Source: Diphasiastrum complanatum (Eukaryota; Streptophyta; Lycopodiopsida; Lycopodiales; Lycopodiaceae). From it: DNA of 64,000 nucleotides. Location of the stretch: assembly GCA_029204225.1 (NCBI GenBank), contig CM055111.1, forward strand, positions 13,477,477 through 13,541,476. Reading direction: 5' to 3'. Of this stretch, positions 6,395-56,032 are shown in pieces. The translations under genes were made by a program, and so were the position numbers. The notes under the pieces are model-generated. The model was not told the origin of the DNA. It ran no database searches and saw nothing but the letters and a program-made list of their open reading frames with translations. Position 1 is the stretch's first letter. The number at the start of each line of letters is the position of its first letter.

Positions 6395-6429
6395 AAATTT
6401 ACATGATTAGGCATAGGGCTAAGCATCTA

Positions 6430-6439
6430 GACACGTGTC
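6430..6439. promoter_or_regulatory. G-box/ABRE-like palindrome upstream of germin-like gene 1
   Basis: GACACGTGTC is a perfect palindrome with a CACGTG core, the binding site of plant bZIP and bHLH factors. It is kept at 17013-17022, 42330-42339 and 48291-48300, and as CACACGTGTC at 26398-26407. It lies about 1 kb from the start codon, so a role in the gene is unproven. Confidence 0.35.
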
Positions 6440-6954
6440 ATCACTTAGAAGTGGTATTTTACATAGCTACTATTGTGAAAATTCAATGTCTCCACAATAT
6501 CAACTTCACTATAGAGCGCCACATGTCTATGTGACCAAAAAAATGCAAAAAAATAGGAGATTTGACTCTCATTTTAAAAGAGAATCGATCAAAAACAAGC
6601 AAATTGTAATTCTTAAATCTACAAATCCTACTTTTGATAGAATTCTATAATATATCACCGTGAATTTTTTTGAATTCTCTTTGATTGCTTGAAAAAATCT
6701 TTTTGTACTCCCTTCAACCTAAAGCTCTGAATCTATTATACTAACAATGATTCTCCCAACAACCAAGGCTCTGATACCAAGTTTTGAAATTGATTTCAAA
6801 ATTGACAATGTCTACAGATCTACTAATCAACAAAATCACAAGAAAACAAGAGCAAGAGCAACTCTCCACGCAAGCATAAGCTCCAAATGATAATTAAAAG
6901 CTAAGTACTCATTAGGACTTTGAGTAGCTACCATCCCATCAATCTACTGGTTGC

Positions 6955-7036
6955 GAGAGAGAGAGAGAGAGAGAGAGAGAGAGAGAGAGAGAGAGAGAGA
7001 GAGAGAGAGAGAGAGAGAGAGAGAGAGAGAGAGAGA
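6955..7036. repeat. (GA)41 microsatellite
   Basis: An 82-bp uninterrupted GA run in the upstream block of germin-like gene 1. The same tract has different lengths in the other units (26, 164, 94 and 94 bp). Confidence 0.98.
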
Positions 7037-7465
7037 TGATTATTAATAGAAATGGTTAAGCAATGCATTAATAACTCTAAATTATTCATATCATACATTG
7101 ATCTTTAAAGATATAAAGACTCTAATAACATGAACATGTAAACTGCATTCTCAAATGATGGCAAATGAAATGATACAAGCCATGTAAGCATTTAAGATAG
7201 ATATTTAGAAATCGCTCTTCCTAACTTTCAAATGACAAGTACATGGACTCTTCATGATTGCATGATTGAAAGACAATTAATACTTCTTTATTAGCATCAA
7301 CCTCAAGGTCGAGATCAATAGACTTATTTTTAATACAAGAGAGAAGATATTTTTGTGTTAGAATCAAAAAGTGCAGAGCAAGTTTGTGTGTGTGTGTGTG
7401 TGTGTGCTTGGGGAATACATTCATCAAAGTATTATCAGGAGGTTGCTGCAGAAGCATTGAATATC

Positions 7466-8146
7466 ATGGCAGGATTTCTTTGGATGAGGTTAGCGATTCT
7501 GGTTTTCGTAGCGACGGCCGCCTTGCACCCACAGCGAAGCTTAGCTTCTGACGAGGATCCATTACAGGACTTCTGTGTGAAGGACACCACCCAAAAGCTC
7601 CACGTGAATGGATTTTCATGCAAAGATCCTGCTCAAGTGCAAGCATCAGACTTCGCATCTGATTCTCTGAAGAAACCCGGAAATACTTCCAATGCACTCG
7701 GCGTAGCAGTCACACCGGCCAACGTTCTCACCTTCGGAGGTCTCAACACTCAGGGGGTCTCCGCAGCTCGAATCGGCTTCGCACCCCACGGCCTCAACCC
7801 TCCCCATGTGCACCCCCGTGCCCCTGAGATTCTCTTCCTCGCAAAGGGCACGCTCCTTGTAGGTTTCGTCACCAGCACGCCGGACAATAAACTCTTCGCG
7901 CAAACGATTAAAGCCGGGGAGCTGTTCATCTTCCCCAGAGGCCTCGTGCATTTCCAGCTCAATGTCGGCTACGGCGCAGCTGTGGCTTTCTGTGCCTTCA
8001 ACAGCCAGAATCCGGGCACCTCGCAAGTTGCAAAGGCGCTCTTTGCCTCCACCCCACCTATCGATGACGCCGTATTAGAGAAGGCATTGCAGCTGAACGC
8101 TGCGGATGTGCAGCGTCTCAGATCTCTGATCAGCAAAACATATTAG
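7466..8146 (+). CDS. GLP: Germin-like protein, copy 1 (226 aa)
   Basis: A germin-like protein: a secreted, single-domain cupin that binds Mn and forms oligomers in the apoplast; family members have oxalate oxidase, superoxide dismutase or no known activity. Residues 1 to about 27 form a signal peptide (MAGFLWMRLAILVF). Cys37 and Cys52 match the conserved germin disulfide. Box 1 is PHVHPRAPE with His114, His116 and Glu121; box 2 is FPRGLVHFQLN with His162: all four metal ligands are present. An NTS glycosylation site is at Asn73. The ATG at 7466 was chosen because it has A at -3 and G at +4 and starts the signal peptide; the frame is open upstream but has no earlier ATG. There is no intron. 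It ends KTY, one residue longer than the other copies because of a one-base difference at the stop. Substrate and enzyme activity cannot be read from the sequence. Confidence 0.96.
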   Translation: MAGFLWMRLAILVFVATAALHPQRSLASDEDPLQDFCVKDTTQKLHVNGFSCKDPAQVQASDFASDSLKKPGNTSNALGVAVTPANVLTFGGLNTQGVSAARIGFAPHGLNPPHVHPRAPEILFLAKGTLLVGFVTSTPDNKLFAQTIKAGELFIFPRGLVHFQLNVGYGAAVAFCAFNSQNPGTSQVAKALFASTPPIDDAVLEKALQLNAADVQRLRSLISKTY

Positions 8147-53690: not shown

Positions 53691-54720
53691 AATCAACGAC
53701 AATCTTCTTGATGCATGTCTTTTTCAATTGATGCTACACATTTACGGGCTGAGGAGATCACTCAGTTCCTAGAAGGCCTGAATATAGTTTCAAAAAGAAA
53801 ATTTTTGCTTAAAACATCGTCCTTTCAACCTATAGCAGGACAGCTTTACAAAAGGGATGTTGACGGTATTATCCGACGATGTCCTTATGAATCTGAAATA
53901 TTGGGTTGAGATACGTGCAACAAAGGACGCCACTGCGAAGACCGTAGCACGTTTTCTTTATGAAAACATTATTACGTGCATTGGCTGTCCAATAGAGCTT
54001 GTTAGTCATCGAGGCACTCACTTCTTAAATGAATTGATCGATAATCTCCTCCACCATTATCTTGTTGTTCACCACAAAAGTACTCCGTACTATCCTATAT
54101 GTAATGGCCAGGAAGAATCCACCAACAACATGATTTGTAAGATCTTAACCAAGATAGTAGAAACAAGCCAATCAGATTGGCAAACCAAACTATTCTCTGC
54201 TATCTGGGTGTACCGCACAACTCCCAAGAAGGCCATTGGATGGGTTACCCCATTCCATCTCGTATATGGTCAAGAGGCAATAATGCCTGTTGAATTCTTG
54301 GTACCATCCTTGAGAGTTATGCAAGCCTTCTCCACGAATCTATGTGAGAAAGCTACCATTGAACAGCAAGTCAAAACCAGGCTCTTTACGTTAGCCCAAT
54401 TGTGTGAGTCTCGACTTATATCGTATCACGCACAATTGGTTAACAAACGTCACCAAAGGCCTGGCACGATTGTCACTTGTGTTCTAAACATTTACACTTA
54501 GGTGATCAGGTGTTTCTTTACAAATCTAAGAAGCATCCAAAAAAACTGAAATTCAGAAGTGAAGGACCTTTTGTTATCAATAAAATCTTTCCTAATGGAG
54601 CAGTCCAACTGCAAACACTTTACGGAGTACTCCTATCCAAGTCGTCAATGGTGGTCGTCTATGGAGATACTACAAAGAGTTGTTTTTTGTTGATCCAATT
54701 TAAACTCCACATTTGTTATA
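53691..54720 (+). mobile_element. Ty3/Gypsy integrase remains
   Basis: Gypsy-type order: DGIIRRC of the zinc-binding region, then the integrase core (CIGCPIELVSHRGTHFLN, HHKSTPYYPICNGQEESTNN, IWVYRTTPKKAIGWVTPFHL, YGQEAIMPVEF) and the C-terminal LGDQVFLYKSKKHPKKLKF part. Broken; no reverse transcriptase of the same type precedes it here. Confidence 0.85.
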
Positions 54721-54930
54721 TATAGTGTTGTTACAATTTTTTTTTTCTGTTTTATTTTCCTTGTTCTGCATGCTTATTTTTGAATCTGCTTGTTGTGATT
54801 ATTCTTGTTCACTGAATCTGTGTATTTTTGGTGCATCTTTATTTTTCGTACTCTTTTTCTCTCATCCATATTCATTCTCAGAGAGAGTTCTAGGTCATCA
54901 ACTCCTGCTCTACACCACAGGGATAAGATC
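54721..54930. other. T-rich stretch after the Gypsy integrase
   Basis: Probably the element's 3' non-coding part. No LTR border recognised. Confidence 0.4.
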
Positions 54931-55090
54931 TTTCATGATCTTGTAGTTGTTGAGATGGACCATCATCTTCTTCAAATTCACTGTTGATAAGTTGTTCCTC
55001 TAAAGTAGATGAGCTAGGATCCTCAATAGGAGAAGTTGACTTGGTAACATAAGATTTTGATAATTCCGGAGAGTCCGATAGTTCGGCTAT
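54931..55090 (-). mobile_element. Copia linker fragment joined to germin-like copy 5
   Basis: Minus-strand sequence IAELSDSPELS and SPIEDPSSST matches the region between integrase and LTR in the Copia remains at about 57060-57140 and 59585-59670. It abuts the truncated germin-like gene at 55090/55091. Confidence 0.75.
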
Positions 55091-55455
55091 CACCCCACGG
55101 CCTCAACCCTCCCCATGTGTTGCACCCCCGTGCCCCTGAGATTCTCTTCCTTGCAAAGGGCACGCTCCTTGTAGGTTTCGTCACCAGCACGCCGGACAAT
55201 AAACTCTTCGCGCAAACGATTAAAGCAAGGGAGCTGTTCATCTTCCCCAGAGGCCTCGTGCATTTCCAGCTCAATGTCGGCTACGGCGCAGCTGTGGCTT
55301 TCTCTGCCTTCAATAGCCAGAATCCAGGCACCTCGCAAGTTGCAAAGGCGCTCTTTGCCTCCACCCCACCTATCGATGACGCCGTATTAGAGAAGGCATT
55401 GCAGCTGAACGCTGCGGATGTGCAGCGTCTCAGATCTCTGATCAGCAAAACATAA
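55091..55455 (+). pseudogene. GLP: Germin-like protein, copy 5, 5'-truncated
   Basis: Corresponds to residues from about 107 to the end of the other copies; signal peptide, disulfide cysteines and start are lost at the junction with Copia sequence. A 3-bp insertion changes box 1 from HVHPRAPE to HVLHPRAPE, altering the spacing of the two metal-binding histidines. Gly151Arg stands just before box 2, and Cys176Ser is shared with copy 3. The frame is otherwise open to the stop. The 3' flank has lost the AATAAA present in copies 1-4. Almost certainly non-functional. Confidence 0.93.
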
Positions 55456-56032
55456 TTAGCAACATTGTGATCCTAGTAAAGCTATGCCCTGAGACTAAAT
55501 ATATATAGCATTCGTGCACACGATGTATAAGTTAAGGACGACTTTTGAAGTAAGACAGATATAAAATTTCTGTTGATAAATTATTCATTTGGTTCCATGC
55601 TCTGCTCGCTCGATCTCATTGTCTAATTTTATGCTCTATGATTTTACATTGAGATTACTGCAGCTTACACAATGTTGCATCGCCTTTTGAGCCTGGCTTC
55701 TTGAAAGCTTAGCACTTTTGCTTTTGAAGATAATTTAATTATAACAACGTAAGTCATGTAGTATCCTATGGCTCGAGTTGCAGATTGGAAGGTTAACACT
55801 CTTGCTTTCAAAGGCATGAGAGATGGACCTGTTATTTATATATTTTTAGCTCTAGTTGTTTGTTATGAATATGAAGAAGTGTACGTTTTTTTATTCCTTA
55901 GCAACCTCCCATTGATTAAGCATCTACAGGTATGTCTTTAAATTTATTTCATATTATACTAGATCACATTTAAGGGGTCAAATGTAGGAAAACTTGTTGT
56001 TTCTTCAAAGCTTCTAGTTTAAATATGGTCTT
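55456..56032 (+). other. 3' flank of germin-like copy 5, truncated
   Basis: Follows the other 3' flanks to ATATGGTC at 56032, then changes to the left arm of the large inverted repeat. Confidence 0.7.

What the first reader, a model, noticed from the sequence alone, without database searches (positions are those of the whole stretch)
6395..56032. Germin-like gene array carried on large retroelement-filled repeat units
Four full-length and one broken germin-like gene lie in the same orientation in units of roughly 10-16 kb that also repeat the same LTRs, leader fragments and microsatellites. Tandem germin-like clusters are known in plants, but here the repeating unit is mostly retroelement sequence, so unequal exchange between LTR-B or LTR-C copies is a likely cause of gene amplification.
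Basis: partly seen in the sequence, partly recalled or inferred. Interest (0 to 1): 0.7.

Follow-up and report, generated by a model that had tools for sequence, protein, structure and literature searches.

The report
Decaying tandem array of germin genes
A plant defence-type gene (germin-like) sits in a row of repeated DNA blocks padded with old jumping-gene debris; the row is real and much rearranged, but gene rows of this kind are well known in plants.

Summary
The array is real. Five germin-like loci (four intact reading frames, one truncated) lie on the + strand, 10.5, 13.4, 12.0 and about 11.4 kb apart. One copia element (547-6275) came in later: identical 655-bp LTRs, 5-bp target-site duplication, empty sites in the four other units. 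Of 22 block junctions scored, 18 show at most 10 bp overlap or 6 bp filler, and one lies in long homology. That fits end-joining or slippage for the visible borders, not LTR-to-LTR exchange. Whether LTR exchange made the founding duplication cannot be tested here. Coding sequence varies half as much as flanks (p=0.0004), but nonsynonymous/synonymous counts do not show selection. An ordinary kind; close precedent: maize P1-wr.

The parts
7466..8146 (+). germin-like CDS, unit 1 (226 aa)
17976..18653 (+). germin-like CDS, unit 2 (225 aa)
31423..32100 (+). germin-like CDS, unit 3 (225 aa); its upstream block P is separated from it by 3.9 kb of other sequence
43378..44055 (+). germin-like CDS, unit 4 (225 aa)
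55091..55455 (+). truncated germin-like CDS, unit 5 (first ~105 codons missing, extra codon in metal-binding motif)
1..547 (+). left part of upstream block P of unit 1, cut by element A; array continues to the left
547..6275 (+). young copia element A: LTRs 547-1201 and 5621-6275 identical, TSD ACTTC at 542-546 and 6276-6280, PBS 1202-1213; integrase before RT; RT domain incomplete; private to unit 1
6276..7400 (+). right part of block P and leader of unit 1, with GA tract and a reverse-orientation primer-binding site at 6768-6779
16318..17910 (+). block P and leader, unit 2
25703..27440 (+). block P and leader, unit 3 (followed by Z, not by germin)
41636..43312 (+). block P and leader, unit 4 (an old copia LTR-like stretch begins by eye at about 41419, same orientation as the gene)
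47646..49262 (+). block P and leader, unit 5 (followed by Z, not by germin)
31359..43312 (+). one complete period used as template (germin 3 to block P of unit 4)
33204..36199 (+). tail of the period; matching stretches at 45104-46684 and 62777-64000
36173..37222 (+). L block; copies or part-copies at 10502-10978, 11212-11978, 21588-22404, 27951-28898, 28895-29421
37460..41320 (+). old copia debris R: reverse-orientation PBS pieces and an RT/RNase H fragment (Pfam hit in the copy at 14346-14840)
27441..27855 (+). sequence Z at the TG tract before germin 3; the same sequence stands at 49262-49687 in unit 5
9193..9194 (.). junction germin-tail to R, shared by units 1 and 2 (19701/19702)

Best explanation
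It is a tandem array of germin-like genes of a land plant (the host group is inferred from the gene and the elements), made by head-to-tail duplication of a ~12-kb segment that already held the gene and old copia debris. Shown: units with the same parts, and a copia insertion (A) private to one unit. Inferred: after the duplications the units exchanged sequence by ordinary homologous recombination or conversion, lost material by end-joining or slippage with very short homology, and took in new insertions. The result is an array of intact genes, one broken gene and leftover half-units from lost copies. The retroelement pieces are mainly passengers.
For: Chain of the window against one period shows the same parts in every interval, mostly in the same order, with deletions, back-steps and inverted pieces. 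Divergence between units: P 3.4-6.1%, leader 1.1-4.5%, CDS 1.2-2.6%. Of 22 junctions scored, 18 lie between 6 bp filler and 10 bp overlap. Apart from the RT triplication the chain steps back along the template twice between germins 1 and 2 and twice between germins 2 and 3, and once passes from P to L over the place of the gene. Mosaic similarity: units 2 and 4 differ 0.5% in the 3' flank but 2.1% in CDS, units 1 and 2 differ 4.1% and 1.2%; a run test gives p 0.0017-0.0039, uncorrected, for 3 of 6 pairs. Structural marks conflict with simple neighbour copying: units 1 and 2 share a junction, units 3 and 5 share Z. Element A has identical 655-bp LTRs and four empty sites.
Against: The array's outer edges are outside the window, so the founding duplication is not seen. 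The run test does not allow for uneven mutation rate, and 3 of 6 pairs gave p 0.17-0.55. For lost copies the L comparison is mixed: the copy at 28229 is no closer to its neighbour (4.4%) than to distant copies (3.8-7.8%), but the copy at 10502 is closest to its neighbour (5.8% over 156 sites, against 7.8-11.1%), which would fit local copying there. BLAST overlap only approximates microhomology, and the template has changes of its own. The window cannot itself exclude assembly errors.
Confidence: 0.75

Rival explanations
1. One reading: unequal crossing-over between LTR copies flanking the gene created and amplified the array.
For: The periods carry an LTR-like stretch in block P and further copia pieces; the one scored junction with long homology lies in a 1.1-kb retroelement duplication. 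A founding exchange between two LTRs would leave one hybrid LTR per period, which is not excluded.
Against: 18 of 22 scored junctions have at most 10 bp overlap. No direct repeat of >=40 bp at E<=1e-3 flanks the gene within a period. The within-period LTR-end match is 57 bp at 81%; between periods 97-117 bp at 76-79%.
Confidence: 0.15
2. The germin gene was captured inside a retroelement and copied by transposition.
For: The four CDSs are uninterrupted and lie near LTR-like and primer-binding sequences.
Against: All copies seen are in tandem in one orientation with shared flanks of several kb; no LTR pair enclosing the gene turned up among the within-period repeats. Two of six GLP clades of rice and Arabidopsis are almost wholly intronless (PMC5085655, passages).
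Confidence: 0.03
3. The mosaic is an assembly artefact of a repeat region.
For: Many abrupt block junctions in a stretch where 80% of bases are repeated.
Against: Copies of the modules differ by 0.5-11%, which should mostly keep accurate long reads apart; four ORFs are intact; two junctions (germin-tail to R; leader to Z) are each shared by two units.
Confidence: 0.07

Closest known systems
Maize P1-wr cluster (PMC2686159; abstract, section list and sections 15 and 18 read)
   Same: Head-to-tail array of ~12-kb gene-bearing repeats (eleven there); polymorphism tracts shared between copies; end-joining; LTR element insertions in the cluster.
   Different: P1-wr repeats are described as nearly perfect, and nine LTR elements sit in the p1/p2 gene of the cluster; here the modules are 0.5-11% diverged and decayed, with copia debris in the period itself.
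Germin-like gene clusters of rice chromosome 8 (11 genes) and Arabidopsis chromosome 5 (12 genes) (PMC5085655; passages seen)
   Same: Same gene family in tandem clusters.
   Different: The passages seen say nothing of retroelement-carrying units; the organism here is unknown.
Cupin tandem clusters of the hornwort Anthoceros angustus (PMC7027989; section 8 read)
   Same: Expansion of cupin genes mainly by tandem duplication.
   Different: Bicupins and other monocupins; unit structure not described in that section.
Ty1/copia LTR retrotransposon (element A)
   Same: Identical LTRs, 5-bp TSD, a primer-binding site of the initiator-Met type (type recalled), integrase ahead of RT.
   Different: RT domain matched over only positions 2-61 of 244 in the ORFs scanned; coding region in three ORFs, so not autonomous as it stands.

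Membership tests
Germin-like protein (cupin superfamily) | Cupin_1 domain above curated cut-off | tested here: met
   152 bits against cut-off 22, copy 1 scanned; copies 1, 3 and 4 are 98, 96 and 96% identical to copy 2 in protein
Germin-like protein (cupin superfamily) | metal-binding residues (HxH..E and a later H; motif recalled) aligned with barley germin | tested here: met
   PPHVHPRAPE and GLVHFQLN present in units 1-4, copy 1 aligned to 2et7; unit 5 has an extra codon in the first motif
Germin-like protein (cupin superfamily) | signal peptide, secretion, oxalate oxidase or SOD activity | not tested
   a hydrophobic N-terminus is visible in the translations; no prediction or assay made
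Tandemly arrayed gene cluster | neighbouring paralogues in one orientation with shared flanks | tested here: met
Array made by LTR-LTR unequal crossing-over | unit borders or array edges within LTR copies, with mismatched TSDs | tested here: inconclusive
   visible junctions do not fit; array edges outside window; TSDs at old LTR stretches not examined
Ty1/copia element (A) | identical LTRs, 5-bp TSD, PBS, integrase before RT | tested here: met
Ty1/copia element (A) | complete coding capacity (autonomous) | tested here: not met
   RVT_2 matched 2-61 of 244 in the ORF at 3880-5112; three separate ORFs; no Pfam match in the third

The most novel reading that the evidence does not exclude
All five units share a retroelement-built upstream block P, with a reversed copia primer-binding site in each and, where the left end is kept, an old copia LTR-like stretch in the gene's orientation about 1.2-2.0 kb upstream of the start codon. 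If that block drives the gene, retroelement regulatory DNA was amplified together with a defence-type gene, and unit 3, whose block P is pushed away by 3.9 kb while its CDS stays intact, is a natural promoter-swap test.
Probability: 0.12. Interest if true: 0.45.

Novelty: new member of a known kind. Interest (0 to 1): 0.22.

Why it matters
It is a readable example of how a plant gene array grows and decays: a private insertion younger than the units, shared junctions and half-units can be put in order of time. That helps to tell passenger retroelements from retroelements that cause duplication. It does not reveal a new kind of system.

Tried and rejected
LTR exchange as the visible cause of unit borders: not borne out for 18 of 22 scored junctions, left open for the founding event. 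R as an intact copia element with its own LTR pair: the only matches between its two ends are 57-99 bp at 77-83%, so R is treated as composite debris. Germin capture inside a retroelement: no enclosing repeat pair found within a period. Purifying selection: CDS varies less than flanks (24 of 677 against 182 of 2541 sites, p=0.0004; without CpG-context sites p=0.005), but 15 nonsynonymous against 9 synonymous changes is not significantly below neutral expectation (p 0.11-0.26), so selection is suggested, not shown. Rfam (gathering threshold) and tRNA scans found nothing. Pfam scans of ten further pieces at E<=1 gave retroelement domains above cut-off in two (53056-53427 plus and 59396-60181 minus) and only below-cut-off hits or none in the other eight. 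Paper searches showed no title or abstract start describing a germin array on retroelement-carrying units; I saw 20 of 213, 20 of 32, 11 of 11, 1 of 1, 15 of 16, 14 of 14, 10 of 30 and 12 of 16 papers, and the library lacks most subscription papers. Passages of the Cycas genome paper (PMC9023351) mention an expanded cupin family and a tandem array of a vicilin-like gene, not a germin array; of PMC3014980 I saw the abstract and section list. The species was not identified.
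Full report
Observation. Five germin-like loci lie on the + strand: CDSs at 7466-8146, 17976-18653, 31423-32100 and 43378-44055 (226, 225, 225, 225 aa) and a fragment at 55091-55455. A tblastn of copy 2 against the window gave these five and four antisense matches at E 0.25-0.93. Copy 1 matches Cupin_1 at 152 bits and barley oxalate oxidase 2et7 at E=2.7e-53. The start-to-start distances are 10,510, 13,447 and 11,955 bp, and about 11.4 kb to the projected start of the fifth. In a self-comparison 80% of the window has a paralogous stretch (at least 100 bp, 75% identity), including repeats outside the array such as the LTRs of element A and the inverted repeat at 56-60.6 kb; one mononucleotide shuffle gave no hit.

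Anatomy. Using germin 3 to block P of unit 4 (31359-43312) as template, most of the rest of the window tiles onto it in the order germin, tail, L, R, P, germin, with deletions, back-steps and inverted pieces; the largest stretches that do not tile are element A, 29.5-31.4 kb, 49.3-53.0 kb, 53.7-55.1 kb and much of 56.0-61.6 kb. R holds copia debris: an RT/RNase H fragment (Pfam RVT_2 in the copy at 14346-14840) and reverse-orientation primer-binding sites; P holds an LTR-like stretch after the RNase H end (read by eye in unit 4) and another reverse primer-binding site, found in all five units, with one mismatch in unit 3. One ORF from the L block and two from the tail gave no Pfam family above cut-off. 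Window 1-547 is block P, and 62777-64000 is tail, so the array extends past both ends.

Later insertions. Element A (547-6275) has 655-bp identical LTRs, a 5-bp target-site duplication and a primer-binding site, and the empty site is seen in units 2, 3, 4 and 5. Block P of unit 1 differs from the others by 3.4-4.3%, so A came in well after the units separated. Its RT domain is matched over only positions 2-61 of 244. Units 3 and 5 share sequence Z at the TG tract just before the gene: 27441-27855 and 49262-49687, part of a 91.6% match that also takes in the leader. In unit 3 the gene follows intact 3.9 kb further on; in unit 5 the first ~105 codons are gone.

Junctions. I scored 22 junctions between neighbouring blocks. 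Two are the closure of the period in the TG tract, one could not be scored (67-bp gap), one lies in 1.17 kb of homology where a duplicated R segment is single between units 2 and 3, and 18 lie between 6 bp of filler and 10 bp of overlap. Four junctions with gaps over 300 bp, and all blocks between 49261 and 62776, were left out. Two of the 18 are one junction shared by units 1 and 2, and two are the repeated join of a 604-bp triplication, so 16 are distinct. Some reflect changes in the template itself (for example 45648/45650). This pattern fits end-joining or slippage better than LTR-to-LTR exchange.

Lost copies. Apart from the triplication, the chain steps back along the template twice between germins 1 and 2 and twice between germins 2 and 3, and once passes from P to L over the place of the gene. 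The L copy at 28229 differs from its neighbour at 28924 by 4.4% and from distant copies by 3.8-7.8%; but the copy at 10502 is closest to its neighbour at 11591 (5.8% over 156 sites, against 7.8-11.1% for the others over about 475). So the first case does not look like recent local copying and the second might. I infer that whole or part units were deleted; local duplication is a live alternative for some steps.

Exchange between units. Units 2 and 4 differ 0.5% in the 3' flank but 2.1% in CDS; units 1 and 2 differ 4.1% and 1.2%. A GENECONV-like run test on 213 polymorphic sites gave uncorrected p=0.0017, 0.0031 and 0.0039 for 3 of 6 pairs and 0.17, 0.46 and 0.55 for the other 3. The test ignores uneven mutation rates. 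Structural marks also conflict with simple neighbour copying: a junction is shared by units 1 and 2, Z by units 3 and 5.

Are the genes maintained? CDS sites vary at 24 of 677 against 182 of 2541 in the flanks (p=0.0004; p=0.005 without CpG-context sites). The change counts are 15 nonsynonymous and 9 synonymous, not significantly below neutral expectation (p 0.11-0.26). Constraint is suggested, but lower mutation or conversion in the CDS would look the same.

Within one period the only direct repeats of at least 40 bp at E<=1e-3 are a 1.1-kb R duplication (88.7%) and a 57-bp LTR-end match (80.7%); neither pair flanks the gene. A founding exchange between two flanking LTRs would leave one hybrid copy per period and is therefore not excluded; the outer edges would decide and are not in the window. 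The window's own genome could not be reached in eleven attempts.

What is known. GLP clusters are common: 11 tandem genes on rice chromosome 8 and 12 on Arabidopsis chromosome 5 (PMC5085655, passages); cupins expanded mainly by tandem duplication in Anthoceros (PMC7027989, section 8). The maize P1-wr locus has eleven 12-kb head-to-tail repeats, with tracts shared between copies, end-joining and LTR insertions in the cluster (PMC2686159, abstract, section list and two sections). The finding is a new member of that kind.

Noticed in passing
56031-58171 and 58524-60645: Large inverted repeat (89.6%, arms ~2.1 kb, 0.35-kb centre) holding copia fragments, just after the broken germin copy; near the centre the arms match block P at about 71%.
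   Followed up: partly
14057-15866: A 604-bp stretch of the old RT region stands three times in tandem, seen only between germins 1 and 2, with the same 3-bp filler at both joins.
   Followed up: partly
547-6275: Copia element with identical LTRs although its RT domain is incomplete, suggesting it moved with help from another element or lost the part very recently.
   Followed up: partly
33373-33738, 34060-34710 (unit 3); 45647-46234 (unit 4): Unidentified open frames in the tail, one coiled-coil-like; no Pfam family above cut-off for the two unit-3 frames scanned.
   Followed up: partly
6955-7036, 17521-17546, 26922-27089, 42852-42945, 48815-48908: The GA tract in block P differs in length between units (82, 26, 168, 94, 94 bp).
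   Followed up: no
53836-54501: Open frame that by eye (recall) resembles a Ty3-type integrase; Pfam gave no integrase match.
   Followed up: partly
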